Source: Radicibacter daui
GTDB lineage: Bacteria > Pseudomonadota > Alphaproteobacteria > Radicibacterales > Radicibacteraceae
Length of the DNA: 64,000 nucleotides
Reading direction: 5' to 3'
NCBI GenBank assembly: GCA_030657355.1
Contig: CP131056.1
Location: 885,001-949,000 of the forward strand
Made by a program: the position numbers and the translations under genes. The notes beneath the pieces are model-generated. The model was not told the DNA's origin and searched no databases. It worked only from the letters and a program-made list of their open reading frames with translations. How positions within the stretch are numbered: the first letter of the stretch is position 1; each line of letters begins with the position of its first letter. Positions 14,522-28,259 of the stretch are shown in pieces.

Positions 14522-16513
14522 TTAAGCGCTGAGGGTCAGCGCATAACGCGCAAAGCCGTTTTCGCCCGGGCCGACATAGGTGACGTTCTTCAGGGAGGCG
14601 GCATAGGCCTGTGCATTGGGCGAGCTGTCGAAGAGCGCCTTCGTCACGCCGGCCACCGGAGCGAAGCTCCAGTTGTTGTCGGCGGACGGGTTGATGGTGC
14701 CCTTGTCGTGGATGTAGCGGATCAGCACGTCGCGGTTGGCGTCCGGTGCCTCGATCACGATCTTGTCCGGGCCCACGCCGGGGAAATTGCCGCCGCCGCC
14801 GGCACGGTAGTTGTTGGTGGCAACGATGAATTTCTGCGCCGGGTCGATCGGCTTGCCCTGGAACTGAAGGTCCACGATGCGGTGGGCATCCGGCGCCGCC
14901 AGCTTGCCATCCTTGTCGTAACGGTTGGGCTGGCTGAGGTCGATCTTGTAAGTCACGCCGTCGATGACGTCGAAATTGTAGGAGGGGAAATCGTTGTTCA
15001 CGAGTTCCTGCTCCGCCTTGCCCGGCGTCAGCTGGTTGAACATGCCGGCCGAGCGCTCCAGCCATTCCTTGACGGTGGCGCCATCCACCAGCACCGCGCG
15101 CACGGTGTTGGGGTAGAGGTAAAGGTCGGCCACGTTCTTGATGGCGACGGGGCCCTTGGGCACGTCGGTATAATAATCCGGGCCGCCACGGCCGCCGGCC
15201 TTGAACGGGGCGGCGGCGGAAAGCACCGGCAGGGCGGCATTGGCCGTGCCCTTGATGAGCTCGGAGATGTACCAGGTCTGTGCCTGACTGACGATCTGCA
15301 CCGAGGGGTCGTCATAAACCAGAGAGAAGAAGCTGTTGATCGGCGCGGAGGTCTCGCCCACCGGGCGGCGCACATAGGCGAGCGTGCCCTCATGGCCCTC
15401 GCGCGCGGCATCTTCCACATCCATGCGCGGGTCGATCAGCGGCACGATGTTCTTGCCGTCGCGCTTGTAGATCGGGCGTGCCTCGCTCTTGTGGTCCACC
15501 ACCTTCCACTTGGCCCCATCCTTCTGCAGCATGAGGTCGATGATGCCGAGATGGCTGCCCCAGAAGCCGGCCATTACAGCCGGAACGCCGTGCAGCGTGC
15601 CCTTCTCGGCATCCACTCCGTCAACGGCGGCATAATCCGGGCCCGGCAGCACCTTGTGCTGGTGGCCGGTGAGGATGGCGTCGATGCCGGGCACTGTGGC
15701 GAGGTAGAGCGCGCTGTCTTCCGCTCCCTCGGTCGGCTGGCCACCATTGATGCCGGAATGGCAGAGCGCGATCACGATCTCGGCGCCGGCCTCGCGCATC
15801 TGCGGCACGTAGGCCTTCGCGGTCTCGACGATGTCACGCGTCATGACATTGCCGGCCAGCCACTTGTTATCCCAGTTCATGATCTGCGGCGGTACGAAGC
15901 CGATCAGGCCGATCTTGACCTTGTGCTCCTTCCCGGTGCCGTCCTTCAGCGTGCGCTCGATAATCATGTAGGGCTTGAGGAAGGTCTTGTCCGCCGTCGG
16001 GCTGCCGGCGAGGGAACCATTGGCAAGGTTGGCCAGCACGAAGGGGAAGTTGGCGCCGGCCAGCGCCTTGTTGAGGAAGTCGAGGCCGTAATTGAATTCG
16101 TGGTTGCCAAGCGTGGCGGCGTCGTAACCCAGCAGGTTCATGGCCTTCATCACGGGATGGACGTTGGTGCCGTCCAGCCCGCGCTCATAGGCCATGAAGT
16201 CGCCCATCGGGTTGCCCTGCAGGAAGTCACCATTATCCAGCAGCAGCGAGTTCGGGGCCTCGGCACGCGCGCCGTTCAGCAGCGCTGCGGTGCGGGCAAG
16301 GCCGACCGTATTGTCCTCGCGGTCGCGATAATAATCGTAGGGGAAGATGTTGACGTGGACGTCGGTGGTTTCAATGAGGCGCAGATGCACCATGTCCTCG
16401 GCAAAGGCCATGTTGCCGAACGGGCTGATGATGAGCCCTGCACCCACACCGGCAAGGGCGGTGGTGGTCAGAAAACGGCGGCGGCTCAGCGGCGCCAGAA
16501 GAAACTTCGACAT
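14522..16513 (-). CDS. cpdB: 2',3'-cyclic-nucleotide 2'-phosphodiesterase/3'-nucleotidase (periplasmic)
   Basis: A 663-residue secreted metallophosphatase that frees phosphate from 2',3'-cyclic nucleotides and 3'-nucleotides. The twin-arginine signal SRRRFLTTTALAGVGAG is at residues 10-26. The catalytic calcineurin-like domain carries ETTDVHVN, LLDNGDFLQGNP, TLGNHEFNYG, CHSG and LTGHQHKV. The C-terminal 5'-nucleotidase domain has NNYRAGGGGNFPG for base stacking. A near-perfect Pho box lies 122 bp upstream, so phosphate starvation should induce it. It ends at a shared terminator with ETF-QO. Confidence 0.95.
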   Translation of the reverse strand: MSKFLLAPLSRRRFLTTTALAGVGAGLIISPFGNMAFAEDMVHLRLIETTDVHVNIFPYDYYRDREDNTVGLARTAALLNGARAEAPNSLLLDNGDFLQGNPMGDFMAYERGLDGTNVHPVMKAMNLLGYDAATLGNHEFNYGLDFLNKALAGANFPFVLANLANGSLAGSPTADKTFLKPYMIIERTLKDGTGKEHKVKIGLIGFVPPQIMNWDNKWLAGNVMTRDIVETAKAYVPQMREAGAEIVIALCHSGINGGQPTEGAEDSALYLATVPGIDAILTGHQHKVLPGPDYAAVDGVDAEKGTLHGVPAVMAGFWGSHLGIIDLMLQKDGAKWKVVDHKSEARPIYKRDGKNIVPLIDPRMDVEDAAREGHEGTLAYVRRPVGETSAPINSFFSLVYDDPSVQIVSQAQTWYISELIKGTANAALPVLSAAAPFKAGGRGGPDYYTDVPKGPVAIKNVADLYLYPNTVRAVLVDGATVKEWLERSAGMFNQLTPGKAEQELVNNDFPSYNFDVIDGVTYKIDLSQPNRYDKDGKLAAPDAHRIVDLQFQGKPIDPAQKFIVATNNYRAGGGGNFPGVGPDKIVIEAPDANRDVLIRYIHDKGTINPSADNNWSFAPVAGVTKALFDSSPNAQAYAASLKNVTYVGPGENGFARYALTLSA

Positions 16514-16634: not shown

Positions 16635-16652
16635 ATGACAGTTTTGTGACGG
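16635..16652 (-). promoter_or_regulatory. Pho box (PhoB binding site) upstream of cpdB
   Basis: Read on the minus strand the site is CCGTCACAAAACTGTCAT: two 7-bp repeats separated by four A, the 11-bp periodicity of PhoB sites. It lies upstream of the phosphate-scavenging cpdB and faces it. Confidence 0.85.
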
Positions 16653-21116: not shown

Positions 21117-22454
21117 TCAGTCGCGCAGCGCCCGTGTCACCGGCTCGCGATAGATGAGGAAGGCCGGCACTGTTGCCAGGATCAGCCCGACAAGGATGAT
21201 GATGCCGGCAAGCGAGAGTTCCGGCAGGCCGAGTGAGACTGTCATGGCCATGTCGGTCTTGCCGGAGACGAGGCGGGAGAGCCCTGCCGCCGCGCCGTAC
21301 CCGAGGCCGAGGCCCGCCAGCGCGCCGCCAGCCACCAGCAGCGCTACCTCGCACCAGATCAGGCTGAAGATATAGGCCCGGGTGGCCCCCATCGCGCGCA
21401 GCACGCCGAAGGTCCGCCGCCGCCGCACCGTCAAGGCCAGTACCGCGACCAGCACCGCTCCAATGACAAGCGCCTGCGTCATGATCGAGAGCCCGGCGAG
21501 AATATCGCGCACATTGCCCAATAGCCCATAAAGCTGCACCAGCACTTCTGCCGGAAACACGGCGATGCTCTCGGCGCTGCGATAATCGGCACGCAGCCCG
21601 TAGGCAGCGGAGAAGCTAACGGGCTTCACCACAATGGCGGGGACGCCCGACAACAGCTTTTCGTCCCAGGGCGGGCCGACGGGAATGCCGTCCGGATCGG
21701 GATGGTCAATGTCGGTTGCAGCCGCATCCAGCGGATGGCCGACGGGAAGCCCGTGTACCCACCATGTCGCCTCGATAGGCACCAGAATGGCCTGATCCCA
21801 CGGCCCGCCGGTCGGGGCGAGGCGGCCGACGATGTTTACTTCGGCGTGATGATGATGTTCCTCGCCCGCAGGCTCGCCGTCTTCATGCTCGTGGTCATGA
21901 TCGTCCGCATCATGGCCGTCCCCGTCATGATCATCGTTGCCGAGAGCTACGGCCTCAGCCTCGGCGGAAGCGAACTGGCCGTGCGTCGGCAGGAAGTGCT
22001 CGCCCACCTGCAGCGGTACGCGTGCGCCGACGACGGCCTCGCCGATATGGCCGAACATCCGGCCCTCGGGCAGCGTGCCGGCGAGGCTCGCAATAAAGTC
22101 GGCGCTGGTGCCGACGATGCTGTGGCCGTGCCAGCTGTCGCCGAAGCCGATAGGCGCGGCGAATTTAACCCGCTCGTCCGTTGCCAGTCTTGCGAGGAGG
22201 CCGGCCGGCATCAGTTCCAGTGAAGCCGGCTGCAAAAAGACGGTGCTCAGAACCAGCTGCGTTTCGCTGCCCGGCGCGCCGACGACGATGTCGAAGGGGC
22301 GGGCGGCGGCTGCGCTGCCGGCGCGCAGGGCGCGGTCCTGCGCCGAGACGGCAACACCGAGTGCGGCGGCAAGGGCGATCAGCGCCGCGAGCGCCAGGCT
22401 GCTGACAGGGCTTTGCTTCAGATGCGCACGCACCAGCGGCAGCGGATTGAACAT
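21117..22454 (-). CDS. FtsX-like (MacB/LolE-type) ABC permease with histidine-rich loop
   Basis: A 445-residue permease with one N-terminal membrane helix (~17-38), a long periplasmic domain and three C-terminal helices, the FtsX/MacB topology. Residues ~173-205 form a striking Asp/His-rich stretch (clusters such as HDADDHDHEHE and EEHHHH), likely to bind zinc or another divalent metal. Just upstream on the same strand are a DUF3299-like protein and phoA, and a suitable ATPase diverges from phoA. This gene set resembles the Pseudomonas aeruginosa PA4063-PA4066 cluster, linked in the literature to zinc limitation (from memory). Cargo is unknown; metal homeostasis or delivery to exported metalloenzymes is inferred. 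Confidence 0.85.
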   Translation of the reverse strand: MFNPLPLVRAHLKQSPVSSLALAALIALAAALGVAVSAQDRALRAGSAAAARPFDIVVGAPGSETQLVLSTVFLQPASLELMPAGLLARLATDERVKFAAPIGFGDSWHGHSIVGTSADFIASLAGTLPEGRMFGHIGEAVVGARVPLQVGEHFLPTHGQFASAEAEAVALGNDDHDGDGHDADDHDHEHEDGEPAGEEHHHHAEVNIVGRLAPTGGPWDQAILVPIEATWWVHGLPVGHPLDAAATDIDHPDPDGIPVGPPWDEKLLSGVPAIVVKPVSFSAAYGLRADYRSAESIAVFPAEVLVQLYGLLGNVRDILAGLSIMTQALVIGAVLVAVLALTVRRRRTFGVLRAMGATRAYIFSLIWCEVALLVAGGALAGLGLGYGAAAGLSRLVSGKTDMAMTVSLGLPELSLAGIIILVGLILATVPAFLIYREPVTRALRD

Positions 22455-22504
22455 CGCTCGGGTTCTCTTGGCTCGGTTCGGGTCGGCGGAAGGGCGGGCG
22501 AGTT

Positions 22505-22954
22505 TCAGAGGGTGCGGGCTTCGGCCTTCACCAGCCGCACTTCGCTGACAAAGCCGGTCTCGTCATCCACCTCGGTGCCCAGCTCCAGCACGCCGGTCAC
22601 CTTGATCGGCACGTTGAAATAGACCCAGTCGATGTCGTCGCGGGTCTTGATCAGCACGATGTCGCGCGGCCAGTCGGCAGTGCTGTCACAGAAGGGGCAG
22701 ATCGCCATCGGCATGCGCGTCAGCACAAAGAATTTCACGTCCGGCTTCAGCGGCGGCGCCATGAAACCGGCAAGGGTGATCTCCTTGCCCGTCAGCGCCT
22801 TTGCCTGATCGGAAAAGGCCATGCGCGCGCCGTAAAGATCGGGGATGCGCAGATCCGGCGGCGCAGCCAGCACGGGGCGCGGACGGTAGGCCGTGAACAG
22901 CGCTGCAGCGGCGATCACGTTCAGGGTCTGGCGGCGATCCAGGCGGGCGGTCAT
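22505..22954 (-). CDS. Exported DUF3299-like protein
   Basis: A 149-residue protein with an N-terminal export signal (MTARLDRRQTLNVIAAAALFT, cleavage probably near VLA). A compact domain of the DUF3299 type follows: LTGKEITLAGFMAPP, VKFFVLTRMPMAICPFCDS (a CxxC pair that could bind metal or be redox-active), and VYFNVPIKVTGVLELGTEVD. It lies 50 bp before the FtsX-like permease and 122 bp after phoA on the same strand. The family has no proven activity. Its repeated association with MacB-like transporters suggests a periplasmic accessory role (inference). The start was chosen because the signal peptide begins there. Confidence 0.72.
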   Translation of the reverse strand: MTARLDRRQTLNVIAAAALFTAYRPRPVLAAPPDLRIPDLYGARMAFSDQAKALTGKEITLAGFMAPPLKPDVKFFVLTRMPMAICPFCDSTADWPRDIVLIKTRDDIDWVYFNVPIKVTGVLELGTEVDDETGFVSEVRLVKAEARTL

Positions 22955-23076
22955 GACAGGTATCTTCCCTTGAAAAACAGGAGATGCAAGGTCGTGTCCT
23001 GAAAGCCGAAGGGGCGGGGCGAGCCTCCTCATCGGAAGGATCGCCCCGCCCCCGGGAACTTCCGGGGCCTTGCGGC

Positions 23077-24597
23077 TTACATGGAAGCGGCCTGCTCGCT
23101 GATCTTCGACGCGTAATCCATCACGTGGAAGATGTACTGCTGGCCGACGGTGCCCTGGAACAGGTGCGCCCACGGGCCGACGGCGAAGATGCCGACATCG
23201 TCACCTGCATGGGTTTCGCTGCTCATCGGGATCAGCGACTGCTGCAGGAAGTCCGGGGCGGTGGTGTCGACATTGGTCAGGTCGGCGCGGGCGCCGTCCT
23301 TGGCCGCACCCGGGCCGTTCATGTAGCCGAGGATGGTGTAGGGCTTGTCGTCATCGCCCTTCAGCACCTTGCCGCCTTCGGTGGCGAGACCGAGGATGTT
23401 GGTGCCGCGGTCGGCATAACCGCTGATCGAGAAGGTGTGGCTGTGGTCAGCCGTCACGATGATCAGCGTCTCGTCGAGGTTCACCTTGGCCATGGCAGCC
23501 TTCACGGCCTGGCTCAGTTCGACGGTGTCTTCCAGTGCACGGTAGGCGTTGCCTTCGTGGTGCGCATGGTCGATACGGCCGGCCTCGACCATCAGGAAGA
23601 AGCCCTTCGGGTTCTTCGACAGCAGCTCGATGCTCTTGGTGGTCATCGCCGCGAGATCCGGCTCGCCGGCCTTGTCGTTGGCGATGTCGGCTTCATATTC
23701 CATGTGCGAGCGGTTGAAGAGGCCGAGCAGATGGTCGGTCTTCGACACGTCGATGGCGTCGAATTCCTTCTTGTTCCACACATAGGCGGAGTTCGGCGCC
23801 TTCTTGACCCACTCGGCGGTCAGGTCGCGGCCATCCTTGCGCACGCCCTTCTTGCCGGCATCTTCCGGGTCATCCATCGTCGCCGGGATGAAGTTGGTGC
23901 GGCCGCCGCCCATGGCGACTTCAAGGCCGTTGCCGTAGGGCGATTCGATCAGCTGGCGGGCGATGTCCTTGCAGCCGGCGGCAGCGGCATCATCCGGCAG
24001 GTTCTTGTCGGCTTCCCAGTCGCGGTGAGCGGTGTGGGCGTAGGTGGCGGCCGGAGTCGCATGCGTCAGGCGGGCAGTGGTGATGACGCCGGTGGAAAGA
24101 CCGGCGGTCTCGGCCATCTCCAGCATCGTCGGCACGGAATGCTCGAGGCCGGCTTTGCAATCACCCTGCTTGACGGCAGAGGTCACACCGATGGTGCCGT
24201 TCGGCGACTTGATGCCGGTCATCATGGCAGCGGCGGTCGGCGCGCTGTCGGCGATCATGCCGTCGGAGGTGTAGGTCTCGGACAGGGCGGAGTACGGGAA
24301 CTTCTCGAAGCTCAGCAGATTGGTCTCGGCCTTGTCGCCCATGCCGTTCTTCTGGCCTTCGAAGATGCGTGCGGCGGTCACCGTCGGCAGGCTCATGCCG
24401 TCACCGACGAAGAGGATGATGTTCTTGGCCTTGCCGGTGTTGGTCTTCTGCTCCATCACGCGCTTCAGCGTGGCCTGGCCTTCGGCGAAATACGGGTCGG
24501 CCGACTGGGTCAGCGTGGCCTTGTCGGCGGCGTAGGCGGAGCCGGCCAGAAGCGCGGCGGCAGCTGCGCCGGCGGCGAGCTTGAGGGTGAAAGTCAT
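23077..24597 (-). CDS. phoA: Alkaline phosphatase (periplasmic)
   Basis: A 506-residue zinc/magnesium phosphomonoesterase. The signal peptide spans residues 1-23 (ends AYA). Metal ligand D66 is in FVGDGMS and nucleophile S119 in ADSAPTAAAMMTG. Further metal-site motifs are MVEAGRIDHAHHEGN, VTADHSHTFS and SETHAGDDVGIFAVGPWAHLF. The ATG at 24597 gives a clean signal peptide. It leads a probable operand with the DUF3299 protein and FtsX-like permease. A minus-strand Pho box at 24737-24754 faces it, so phosphate starvation should induce it. Confidence 0.95.
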   Translation of the reverse strand: MTFTLKLAAGAAAAALLAGSAYAADKATLTQSADPYFAEGQATLKRVMEQKTNTGKAKNIILFVGDGMSLPTVTAARIFEGQKNGMGDKAETNLLSFEKFPYSALSETYTSDGMIADSAPTAAAMMTGIKSPNGTIGVTSAVKQGDCKAGLEHSVPTMLEMAETAGLSTGVITTARLTHATPAATYAHTAHRDWEADKNLPDDAAAAGCKDIARQLIESPYGNGLEVAMGGGRTNFIPATMDDPEDAGKKGVRKDGRDLTAEWVKKAPNSAYVWNKKEFDAIDVSKTDHLLGLFNRSHMEYEADIANDKAGEPDLAAMTTKSIELLSKNPKGFFLMVEAGRIDHAHHEGNAYRALEDTVELSQAVKAAMAKVNLDETLIIVTADHSHTFSISGYADRGTNILGLATEGGKVLKGDDDKPYTILGYMNGPGAAKDGARADLTNVDTTAPDFLQQSLIPMSSETHAGDDVGIFAVGPWAHLFQGTVGQQYIFHVMDYASKISEQAASM

Positions 24598-24736
24598 CGC
24601 TTGTGTTTCCCTGCCTTGAAGGGGGGGCATCATCGATCCCCCGGATGGGCCCCTGTGCGGGCGGCGCCCCGGCCTGCGACATATTGGCCGGAGACGTTAT
24701 GCCGCACTGGCGTAACACCCGCTCCGTTACGGGCCG

Positions 24737-24754
24737 ATGACGGGTACGTGACGT
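24737..24754 (-). promoter_or_regulatory. Pho-box-like site facing phoA
   Basis: Read on the minus strand: ACGTCAC-GTAC-CCGTCAT, two repeats with the 11-bp period of PhoB sites. A weaker third unit, CCGTAAC, follows in the same register. It lies 140 bp upstream of phoA. Confidence 0.7.
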
Positions 24755-24770
24755 TTGCGAAGCAGTTGCA

Positions 24771-24788
24771 CTGTCACCGAACTTTCAC
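24771..24788 (+). promoter_or_regulatory. Pho-box-like site facing the ABC ATPase gene
   Basis: Plus strand CTGTCAC-CGAA-CTTTCAC: both repeats fit the PhoB consensus with 11-bp periodicity. It lies 67 bp before the ATPase start, which suggests that the transporter and phoA are induced together. Confidence 0.7.
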
Positions 24789-24854
24789 TCGACGTGCTGC
24801 CGGCCTGCGGGTGACTAGTGGCAGGCTGCACCCAACTCGCGGACTCCGCCTGCC

Positions 24855-25532
24855 ATGCCCGACCTGATTGCCGAAAATCTCCTGCTCAGCTTTCCCGGTC
24901 AGGGCAAGGAAGCGCCGGTGCTCGATCTCGCCCGGCTGGAGGTGGCCGCCGGCACGCATCTGGCCATCACCGGCCCCTCGGGTGCGGGCAAGAGCACGCT
25001 GCTTTATGTGCTGACGGGTATCGAGAAGCCGGATGGCGGCAGCGTGCGCTGGGGGGCGGAAGACTTGACGGCGATGCCGGAAGCCGCGCGTGACCGCTGG
25101 CGGCGCCGGCATGTCGGTTTTGTCTTTCAGGATTTCCACCTCATCCCCGGTCTGGATGCGCTGGAAAATGTCCTTCTGCCGCTCAGTTTTTCCAATCTTT
25201 CCGTCTCCGGCGAGCAGCGCGCCCGTGGCCGCGACCTGCTGGGCCGCATGGGGCTGACTGCCGCCGGAACGCCGGCCAGCCGCCTGTCGCGCGGGGAGCA
25301 GCAGCGCGTGGCGCTCGCCCGGGCGCTCATCCAGTCTCCCGCCATCATCGTGGCGGACGAGCCGACGGCAAGCCTCGATGCCGCCAGCGCCGACAAGGTG
25401 ATGGATCTGCTGATGGAAGCGGCGGGCGAACTGGGCGCGACGCTGATTGCGGTGACGCACGATCCGATGGTGCAGCAGCGCCTCGGCCGGGAGCTCAACC
25501 TTTCCCATGGCCGGCTGATGCAGGCCGCCTGA
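24855..25532 (+). CDS. ABC transporter ATP-binding protein (LolD/MacB type)
   Basis: A 225-residue ATPase: Walker A GPSGAGKST at residues 39-47, Q-loop FVFQDFHLIPGLDALENVLLPL (the LolD/MacB X-loop style), signature LSRGEQQR, Walker B IIVADEPTASLD and switch His in VTHD. No permease follows it. The only matching one in the window is the histidine-rich FtsX-like permease encoded divergently beyond phoA, its probable partner. A plus-strand Pho box precedes it. The start is the ATG beginning MPDLIAENLLLSF. Confidence 0.88.
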   Translation: MPDLIAENLLLSFPGQGKEAPVLDLARLEVAAGTHLAITGPSGAGKSTLLYVLTGIEKPDGGSVRWGAEDLTAMPEAARDRWRRRHVGFVFQDFHLIPGLDALENVLLPLSFSNLSVSGEQRARGRDLLGRMGLTAAGTPASRLSRGEQQRVALARALIQSPAIIVADEPTASLDAASADKVMDLLMEAAGELGATLIAVTHDPMVQQRLGRELNLSHGRLMQAA

Positions 25533-27152: not shown

Positions 27153-28259
27153 ATGGGTTTCAACTGCGGCATCGTCGGCCTGCCTAATGTCGGCAAGTCG
27201 ACCCTGTTCAACGCGCTCACCAGCACCCAGGCGGCAGAAGCGGCGAACTTTCCCTTCTGCACCATCGAGCCGAACACCGGCCGTGTCGGTGTGCCCGATC
27301 CGCGCCTGACGAAGGTCGCCGATATTGCCAAGTCGGCACAGATCATCCCGACCCAGCTGGAGTTCGTGGATATCGCCGGCCTCGTGCGCGGCGCCAGCAA
27401 GGGCGAAGGGCTTGGCAACCAGTTCCTCGCCAATATCCGCGAAACCGACGCCATCGTCATGGTGCTGCGCTGCTTCGAGGATGACAACATCACCCATGTG
27501 GAAGGCTCGGTCGACCCGATCCGCGATGCCGAAGTCATCACCACCGAGCTGATGATCGCCGACCTCGAATCGCTGGAAAAGCGCGAGCAGGCGCTGATCA
27601 AGCGCGTGCGCGGCAATGATATCGAAGCCAAGGAAACGCTGGCGCTGGTCGCACGCGTGCTGCCGCTGCTGCGCGACGGCAAGCCGGCCCGTGTGCTGCT
27701 GCCGGAGCTTTCGCCGGATGAGCGCGAGCGCTTCCGCCAGCTTCAGCTGCTCACCTCCAAGCCGCAGCTCTATGTCGCCAATGTGGATGAGGACAACGCC
27801 GCTACCGGCAATGCCCTCTCCGCCAAGGTGGCCGAGCTGGCAAAGGCTGAAGGTGCGGTGTCCGTTATCATCTCCGCCGCCATCGAGAGCGAGGTCGCCC
27901 AGCTCGATGATCCGGAAGAGAAGAAGGAATTCCTTGCCGGTCTCGGCCTTGATGAGCCCGGCCTCAACAAGGTGATCCGCGCCGGCTACGAGTTGCTCGG
28001 CCTGCTCACCTTCTTCACCGTCGGCCCCAAGGAAGCCCGTGCCTGGACCGTGCGCAAGGGCGCCACGGCGCCGGAAGCCGCCGGCGCCATCCACACCGAT
28101 TTCCAGCGCGGTTTCATCAAGGCCGAAACCATCGCCTACGACGACTATGTCGCCCTCGGCGGCGAATCCGGCGCCCGCGATGGCGGCAAGCTGCGGCAGG
28201 AAGGCAAGGAATACATCGTCAAGGATGGCGATATTTTCCATTTCCGCTTCAACGTCTGA
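27153..28259 (+). CDS. ychF: Redox-regulated ATPase YchF (OLA1 family)
   Basis: A 368-residue Obg-like P-loop protein that prefers ATP and binds ribosomes. G1 is [15 protein letters not shown]3 [20 protein letters not shown], and the altered G4 reads YVANVDED in place of NKxD. It has the central coiled coil and a C-terminal TGS domain ([20 protein letters not shown]...[10 protein letters not shown]). The gene starts immediately after the pth stop with no gap, so the two are coupled. It ends convergently with the zorya operon. Confidence 0.97.

What the first reader, a model, noticed from the sequence alone, without database searches (positions are those of the whole stretch)
21117..25532. phoA-DUF3299-FtsX permease with a divergent ABC ATPase: possible metal-supply module for exported phosphatase
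The permease has a dense His/Asp loop (~173-205) and the DUF3299-like protein a CxxC pair. An ATPase-FtsX-DUF3299 set resembles the P. aeruginosa PA4063-PA4066 zinc-limitation cluster. Here it surrounds zinc-dependent alkaline phosphatase and shares predicted Pho control. A role in zinc handling for PhoA is a testable new idea.
Basis: inference. Interest (0 to 1): 0.62.

Follow-up and report, generated by a model that had tools for sequence, protein, structure and literature searches.

The report
Alkaline phosphatase with companion ABC transporter
A zinc-dependent phosphatase that bacteria export when phosphate runs short is repeatedly found next to its own small membrane machine, related to systems that bacteria switch on when zinc runs short, which may help supply or load the enzyme's metal.

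Summary
At 21117-25532 lie an FtsX/MacB-type permease, a diverged DUF3299-superfamily protein ("D") with CxxC, a PhoA-family alkaline phosphatase with its zinc ligands, and a divergent LolD/MacB-type ATPase. A 13/14 Pho box precedes the ATPase; weaker 11/14 boxes face phoA.

D found without regard to neighbours has a PF00245 phosphatase in its cluster in 21 of 32 loci (Pseudomonadota, Bacillota, Chloroflexota), mostly phosphatase-D-ATPase-permease. Canonical DUF3299 regions have one in 0 of 41, but a Fur/Zur-like or ZnuA gene in 12 of 41, against 0 of 21 PhoA-linked D regions. The window's genome also carries a canonical set behind a weak Zur-like palindrome.

The long His/Asp loop is not conserved. 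What is conserved, in PhoA-linked and canonical permeases alike, is a periplasmic histidine set (H158 and H234 in 59 of 59, H201 in 56).

Best reading: a Pho-regulated, PhoA-dedicated branch of the ZrgBC/PA4064-4065 kind that helps metallate or mature the exported enzyme. Linkage is shown; zinc loading is inferred. Against: ten D genomes without any PF00245, 11 of 13 PhoA genomes without D, and a study proposing PA4064-4065 as pyochelin-cobalt exporter.

The parts
21117..22454 (-). FtsX/MacB-type permease, 445 aa, with conserved periplasmic H158, H201, H234, D55, D106, D220 and a window-specific His/Asp-rich insertion between H158 and H201
   Evidence: PF02687; Foldseek best hits MacB 5GKO and a LolCDE chain, E 3e-11 and 5e-11 (model pLDDT 70.4, pTM 0.49); conserved positions in 59 permeases
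22505..22954 (-). D: diverged DUF3299-superfamily exported protein, 149 aa, CPFC at residues 86-89, twin-arginine-type N terminus
23077..24597 (-). PhoA-family alkaline phosphatase, 506 aa, Sec-type signal (by eye); closest solved structures are animal alkaline phosphatases
   Evidence: PF00245 447.8 bits; phmmer 407 bits to 10TV against 122 bits to E. coli 1ALK; metal ligands
24855..25532 (+). LolD/MacB-type ABC ATPase, 225 aa, divergent from phoA
   Evidence: PF00005, LolD best in NCBIfam but under its cut-off, motifs
24771..24788 (+). Pho-box-like direct repeat, 13/14, 66 bp before the ATPase start
24726..24754 (-). two overlapping weaker Pho-box-like repeats (11/14 each) about 130 bp before phoA

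Best explanation
A phosphate-starvation-induced maturation module for exported alkaline phosphatase. PhoA is exported (Sec) as an apoenzyme. The ATPase and permease form a MacB-type (mechanotransmission) complex whose periplasmic domain carries a conserved histidine set; D, with a CxxC, works at the outer face of the inner membrane as its adaptor or metal carrier (twin-arginine signal in the window's class, lipoprotein in several Bacillota and Chloroflexota relatives). ATP-driven movement of the permease would pass zinc from the histidine site or D to apo-PhoA, or hold and release PhoA while it is metallated. Shown: the genes, the family relationships, the cross-phylum linkage, the conserved histidines, the Pho-type box before the ATPase. 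Inferred: that zinc is the cargo, that PhoA is the client, the direction of transfer, and that PhoB acts at the boxes.
For: PhoA in the cluster in 21 of 32 D loci against 0 of 41 canonical DUF3299 regions; order PHO-D-ATP-FTX in 18 of 20 scored loci. Two phosphatase subfamilies only 26-32% identical are both linked, and G146 pairs a phosphatase of the type seen in the gamma genomes with a permease of the alpha-type clade (G146's permease branch is long), so the pairing survived a change of phosphatase subtype. All six Zn ligands kept in 21 of 21. H158/H234 in 59 of 59 and H201 in 56 of 59 permeases. Relatives of the set are zinc-regulated genes in Vibrio and P. aeruginosa, and canonical sets here have Fur/Zur-like or ZnuA genes in 12 of 41 regions. 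One PhoA-less relative has DUF885 (PF05960) directly upstream of D, in PhoA's place (G098); one distant D lies beside ZnuA and NicO; PCuAC chaperone genes follow the permease in at least 2 of 9 Rhodobacterales-order loci (the only two scanned for it; one over Pfam's cut-off, one just under). Pho boxes of 12/14 or better upstream in 4 of 21 modules (window and Cricetibacter 13) against 0 of 30 canonical sets.
Against: No biochemical evidence of metal handling in this branch. Ten D genomes have no PF00245 at all (some are incomplete), and 11 of 13 PhoA genomes in a 162-genome draw of the window's class have no D; co-occurrence there is only borderline (2/13 v 3/149, Fisher p 0.052, taking the draw to be G000-G161 as its numbering suggests). 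PF00245 enzymes close to the window's (G115, G012) have no module gene within 1.5 kb. The histidine set is shared with canonical permeases, so it does not single out a PhoA role. In 15 of 21 modules the best Pho-box match upstream is no better than chance at p<=0.05. Zn content of PA4065 mutants was unchanged and PA4066 shows no evident Zn binding (PMC11481552); zrgD and zrgE knockouts alone had no phenotype (PMC9820375). A PQQ dehydrogenase (Ca/lanthanide-type, recalled) beside D in G364 does not fit a zinc-only role. G014 keeps PHO-ATP-FTX while D is reduced to a remnant, so D seems dispensable there.
Confidence: 0.45

Rival explanations
1. Secretion or release machine: the MacB-type complex moves PhoA (or a companion) off the inner membrane or across the outer membrane, as MacB and Lol complexes do with their substrates; metal plays no part.
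For: Permease and ATPase are MacB/LolCDE-like; PhoA is the constant neighbour. In G1029 an RND-efflux-like gene (by eye) lies just upstream of phoA.
Against: No MacA/TolC-like gene was noticed beside the modules in the listings (not searched by profile). The module also occurs in Bacillota and Chloroflexota, some of them probably without an outer membrane (inferred, most genomes unnamed). The phosphatases looked at by eye start with Sec-type signals. The conserved histidines are unexplained.
Confidence: 0.2
2. Zinc scavenger under Pho control: the set imports or mobilises zinc for the cell, as ZrgABC is thought to, because PhoA synthesis drains zinc; PhoA is a neighbour by shared regulation only.
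For: Family tie to ZrgABCDE/PA4063-4066; own genome has a second, canonical set with a weak Zur-like palindrome.
Against: No Fur/Zur-like or ZnuA gene in any of 21 PhoA-module regions; no ZrgA-type gene inside the block; adjacency to the enzyme is tighter than co-regulation needs (same order in 18 of 20).
Confidence: 0.17
3. Transporter for a phosphatase substrate or product, with D as a binding protein.
For: Fits Pho-type control and linkage to a phosphatase.
Against: MacB-type complexes lack the usual importer architecture (recalled); canonical relatives are tied to zinc, not phosphate; histidines and CxxC unexplained.
Confidence: 0.1
4. Generic exporter (as proposed for PA4064-4065 with pyochelin-cobalt) that became linked to phoA by horizontal transfer of a fixed gene block.
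For: PMC11481552; sparse, patchy distribution: 10/385, 2/369, 7/299 genomes; other neighbours in four relatives whose permeases lie inside the PhoA-linked clade.
Against: Linkage is found with two phosphatase subfamilies only 26-32% identical.
Confidence: 0.08

Closest known systems
ZrgABCDE of Vibrio (zrgB permease, zrgC ATPase, zrgE DUF3299)
   Same: MacB-like permease with large periplasmic domain, separate ATPase, DUF3299 protein (PMC9820375 and PMC9817125, passages read); the canonical permeases sampled here share the histidine set
   Different: Zur-regulated there, Pho-type boxes here; no ZrgA (DUF2796) or ZrgD gene inside this block; no phosphatase in that operon; D strongly diverged, with CPFC
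PA4063-PA4066 of Pseudomonas aeruginosa
   Same: MacB-type two-subunit transporter plus DUF3299 (PA4066 is the best structural match to D)
   Different: zinc/Zur control and proposed pyochelin-cobalt export (PMC11481552); no phosphatase in the operon
MacB / LolCDE / FtsEX (mechanotransmission ABC complexes)
   Same: fold and ATPase type
   Different: the sequence matches lie in the C-terminal membrane part; here separate ATPase and permease genes linked to phosphatase and D
ZNT5-ZNT6 / ZNT7 activation of tissue-nonspecific alkaline phosphatase in vertebrates
   Same: functional analogy only: dedicated membrane transporters stabilise and metallate an exported alkaline phosphatase (PMC5666860, passages read); the window's enzyme is closest in PDB to that animal family
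   Different: unrelated proteins, secretory pathway, not an ABC ATPase

Membership tests
DUF3299 (PF11736) | match to the Pfam model over its cut-off | tested here: not met
   no family listed at E<=10; the whole-genome search finds only the other locus
DUF3299 superfamily | profile and fold similarity to DUF3299 members | tested here: met
   hhalign 96.7%; 4HSP best Foldseek hit, TM 0.53
ZrgBC/PA4064-4065-type transporter | MacB-like permease and separate ATPase next to a DUF3299-superfamily gene, with the conserved histidine set (my definition from the 59 permeases) | tested here: met
ZrgABCDE / PA4063-4066 operon | ZrgA/PA4063 (DUF2796) zinc protein in the operon | not tested
   no further gene lies inside the 21117-25532 block; the family was not searched for in the genome
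ZrgABCDE / PA4063-4066 operon | Zur control | tested here: not met
   0 matches to a recalled Zur-type palindrome in the window at 3 mismatches; a consensus scan only
PhoA-type alkaline phosphatase (PF00245) | family match and both zinc sites | tested here: met
Pho regulon | PhoB-binding boxes and induction by phosphate starvation | tested here: inconclusive
   13/14 box before the ATPase, 11/14 boxes toward phoA; induction not testable
Metallochaperone / metallation system | binds metal and transfers it to the enzyme | not testable with these tools
   none

The most novel reading that the evidence does not exclude
An ATP-driven metallation machine dedicated to one exported enzyme: under phosphate starvation bacteria of several phyla make PhoA together with its own zinc-loading ABC complex, a bacterial counterpart of the vertebrate ZNT5/6/7-alkaline phosphatase pathway. 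The same machine may have been re-used with other exported metalloenzymes (DUF885 upstream of D in G098; PQQ dehydrogenase next to D in G364).
Probability: 0.35. Interest if true: 0.82.

Novelty: new variant of a known kind. Interest (0 to 1): 0.6.

Why it matters
How exported metalloenzymes get their metal outside the cytoplasm is poorly understood (recalled), and the listings I saw named no dedicated zinc supplier for bacterial PhoA (one search listed 12 of 38 papers, titles and abstracts only). The function of DUF3299 proteins and of ZrgBC-type MacB relatives is open or disputed. A tight link to an enzyme with a simple colour assay makes both questions directly testable. If right, it also bears on zinc-phosphorus co-limitation, since PhoA needs zinc (PMC5454538, abstract start in the listing).

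Tried and rejected
Pfam and NCBIfam did not name D; settled by fold and profile comparison. A PDB sequence search with the D profile found nothing. The idea that the long His/Asp loop is the key element was dropped when the loop proved variable. A ZepA zinc-uptake paper (PMC10957091; abstract, outline and one find) was checked because of its title; the find gave no occurrence of permease, PA4063, operon, phosphatase or FtsX, so it was set aside. A general need of PhoA for D was rejected by the PF00245 surveys. Pho boxes before all modules: only 6 of 21 reach p<=0.05, so Pho control is not claimed for the whole set; the regions were set by stop-to-stop reading frames and may miss promoters, and the window's own best hit there is the ATPase-facing box. 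The permease model has pLDDT under 50 in the histidine loops (159-202, 235-268), and no coordinates were on hand, so clustering of the three histidines could not be measured. The 445-aa neighbour in G354 has no Pfam or NCBIfam match. In one search five of the 48 canonical places gave no single clear reading and L086 was ambiguous; they were left out, and L109 was kept in a wrong frame.
Full report
WHAT IS THERE. The window lies at C1:885001-949000 of a 5.06-Mb, two-contig genome, taken here to be an alphaproteobacterium (inferred; no tool names it). Permease, D and phoA run leftwards; the ATPase runs rightwards from a shared 257-bp gap.

D IS A DIVERGED DUF3299 PROTEIN. Pfam does not name it. 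Its model (pLDDT 77.7) has PA4066, PDB 4HSP, as best Foldseek hit in a library of 350,542 chains (E 7.3e-6, TM 0.53), and a profile of 14 D proteins aligns to 42 canonical DUF3299 sequences (96.7%, with the flaws told under Tried and rejected). D proteins share GFMAPPLK, FFVLT and CPFC blocks. CPFC, CPYC or CPHC occurs in 31 of 32; the exception reads CPFD. N termini: of 16 D proteins from the window's class draw and the Rhodobacterales-order draw the script flagged a twin-arginine pattern in 13, and by eye I add G782 and G364, so 15 of 16; gamma ones 0 of 5. The script also flagged Avacidaminococcus and 2 of 15 canonical rows, one of them convincing. A lipobox was flagged in G1308, G1228, G1357 and, loosely, in G1289, Cricetibacter, G902 and G772; by eye L008, G1318 and G1333 have one. 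Twin-arginine substrates are usually exported folded, often with a cofactor (recalled), which suits a metal carrier but proves nothing.

IS THE NEIGHBOURHOOD CONSERVED? The only genome-contig scan, with D alone as query, returned six loci: Puniceibacterium (Alphaproteobacteria), Cricetibacter, Limnobaculum and Budvicia (Gammaproteobacteria; Budvicia's placing recalled), Avacidaminococcus (Bacillota) and an Anaerolineaceae MAG (Chloroflexota) (lineages). In 6 of 6 the gene before D is a PF00245 phosphatase. Genome surveys with D profiles (A1 or A2) at E<=1e-10 gave 10 of 385 genomes in the window's class, 2 of 369 in Limnobaculum's class, 9 of 149 in Puniceibacterium's order, 2 of 197 in Cricetibacter's order and 7 of 299 in Avacidaminococcus's phylum. 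Each draw includes its centre. With the two loci not met again (L008, L011) that is 32 D loci; 21 have the phosphatase in the same cluster, or 20 of 31 without the window. By draw: 3/10, 2/2, 9/9, 2/2, 3/7, plus 2/2. Order is PHO-D-ATP-FTX in 18 of 20 scored; G1318 has PHO-ATP-FTX-D; the window has the ATPase turned round. L008 ends after D and was not scored.

CONTROL. PF11736 searches found canonical DUF3299 in 28 of 190 and 16 of 143 genomes, 50 places. I read 41 regions covering 42 of those 50 places, 4.4 to 15.5 kb each. By phmmer over 30 bits a phosphatase match occurs in 0 of 41, a permease match in 34, an ATPase match in 34, a Fur/Zur-like match in 11, ZnuA in 4, either of the last two in 12. 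The phosphatase references found 21 of 24 PF00245 loci and missed the three weakest, so a very diverged phosphatase could be overlooked. The reference called Zur is the Fur-family gene beside one canonical set (by eye), so read it as Fur-family. In D regions either occurs in 0 of the 21 with PhoA (one of these, L008, is only 3.5 kb) and in 1 of 32 overall (G055, ZnuA). Adjacency 21/32 against 0/41 has Fisher p 1e-10; loci are related by descent, so p is nominal.

THE ELEVEN D LOCI WITHOUT PhoA. Ten of these genomes have no PF00245 match anywhere (two of them only 84-88% complete); G1308 has one elsewhere (which covered 22 of the 32 D genomes; 11 of the 12 PF00245 matches found lie in the module). 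In G098 a DUF885 gene (PF05960, cut by the contig end) sits directly upstream of D; in G364 a PQQ alcohol dehydrogenase gene lies next to D in the same direction, with the permease 4 kb further and no ATPase match in view; in G354 a 445-aa protein without a family lies between permease and D; in G077 the 4.6-kb contig shows permease, D and a divergent ATPase as in the window; G055, G177 and G350 are distant D proteins without permease or ATPase beside them; the four Bacillota have ATPase-permease-D only. Permeases of G098, G077, G364 and G354 fall inside a 100/100-supported clade of 21 that holds 17 PhoA-linked ones, so PhoA was lost or replaced there, or gained more than once. The split of that side of the tree from the 31 canonical permeases is weak (84/56).

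PhoA WITHOUT D. In a 162-genome draw of the class 13 genomes have PF00245; two (G000, G146) have D. G014, in G146's genus, keeps PHO, ATPase and permease with 214 bp and only a D-like remnant between. Enzymes close to the window's, in G115 and G012, have none of the module within 1.5 kb. So the module is an accessory.

PERMEASE. In 59 permeases (20 PhoA-linked, 8 other D-linked, 31 of the 34 canonical regions with a match; four D loci show no permease) D55, D106, H158, D220 and H234 are invariant and H201 is kept in 56. They lie between the first two membrane helices, in the periplasmic domain by analogy with MacB. The window's His/Asp stretch is an insertion between H158 and H201. Foldseek gives MacB and LolCDE as nearest folds on a mediocre model (pLDDT 70.4, pTM 0.49).

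PHOSPHATASES. All 21 keep the nucleophile, both zinc sites and the Mg Glu/Thr; His180 is His in 11 and Asp in 10. The two types are 26-32% identical. G146 and G782 carry the type of the gamma genomes; G146's permease nonetheless groups with the alpha ones.

REGULATION. Scoring CTGTCAY-N4-CTGTCAY, two sites in 64 kb reach 13/14: 24771-24788(+) before the ATPase, and 16635-16652(-) before a 2',3'-cyclic nucleotide phosphodiesterase gene, the second a natural positive control. Four sites at up to 2 mismatches compare with 0.82 expected (3 of 100 shuffles reach four). Toward phoA the boxes are weaker (11/14). Upstream of the 21 phosphatases 6 reach p<=0.05 in 200 first-order shuffles each, and 4 reach 12/14 or better against 0 of 30 canonical sets. 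The canonical set of the same genome (L033) has TGTTACATTATATCG shortly before the ATPase (3 mismatches; 10 of 200 shuffles do as well), so two paralogous sets may answer to different starvation signals.

LITERATURE. Passages of PMC11481552: PA4064-4065 is MacB-type, proposed to export pyochelin-cobalt; Zn content unchanged in mutants, yet the operon is zinc-regulated and PA4065 loss worsens low-zinc growth in a strain without its main zinc importers; PA4066 tetrameric without evident zinc binding. PMC9820375: ZrgA binds zinc and is needed at low zinc; zrgD and zrgE knockouts had no effect. PMC9817125: zrgE is DUF3299, operon strongly induced without zinc. PMC5666860: vertebrate alkaline phosphatase is stabilised and metallated by ZNT complexes. 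Searches whose listings showed no description of the present module: 12 of 38 listed; open-licence PMC only.

VERDICT. Real, conserved and not described in the listings seen; a PhoA-linked branch of a known transporter kind. Zinc loading is the most economical mechanism but remains inference.

Noticed in passing
window 16635-16652(-) and 14522-16513(-): A 13/14 Pho box about 120 bp before a 2',3'-cyclic-nucleotide 2'-phosphodiesterase/3'-nucleotidase gene, probably a second Pho-regulon gene in the window.
   Followed up: partly
L033:4689-7170 (G000:C1, about 2342.7-2345.2 kb): The same genome has a canonical ATPase-FtsX-DUF3299 set with a weak Zur-like palindrome near the start of the ATPase gene.
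   Followed up: partly
L171 (G014): PhoA-ATPase-permease with D reduced to a remnant, in a genome of the same genus as G146, which has D.
   Followed up: partly
L053:10409-10897, L057:5541-6038: PCuAC-type copper chaperone gene directly after the permease in two Rhodobacterales-order genomes (the second just under Pfam's cut-off).
   Followed up: partly
L024:2389-3093(-): DUF885 protein with an HEGIPGHH stretch in the place PhoA has elsewhere.
   Followed up: partly
L027:6779-8113: 445-aa protein with a signal-like N terminus and no Pfam or NCBIfam match, between permease and D.
   Followed up: partly
L088, L092, L094: Some canonical DUF3299 proteins also carry CPFC (CPFCLPGG), so the CxxC is not unique to the PhoA-linked branch.
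   Followed up: no
L060:10357-13515: An RND-efflux-like gene (by eye) lies just upstream of the phoA module in G1029.
   Followed up: no
window 27153-28259; L059:11700-12809: A ychF-like GTPase gene (by eye) lies near the phoA module both in the window and in G850.
   Followed up: no
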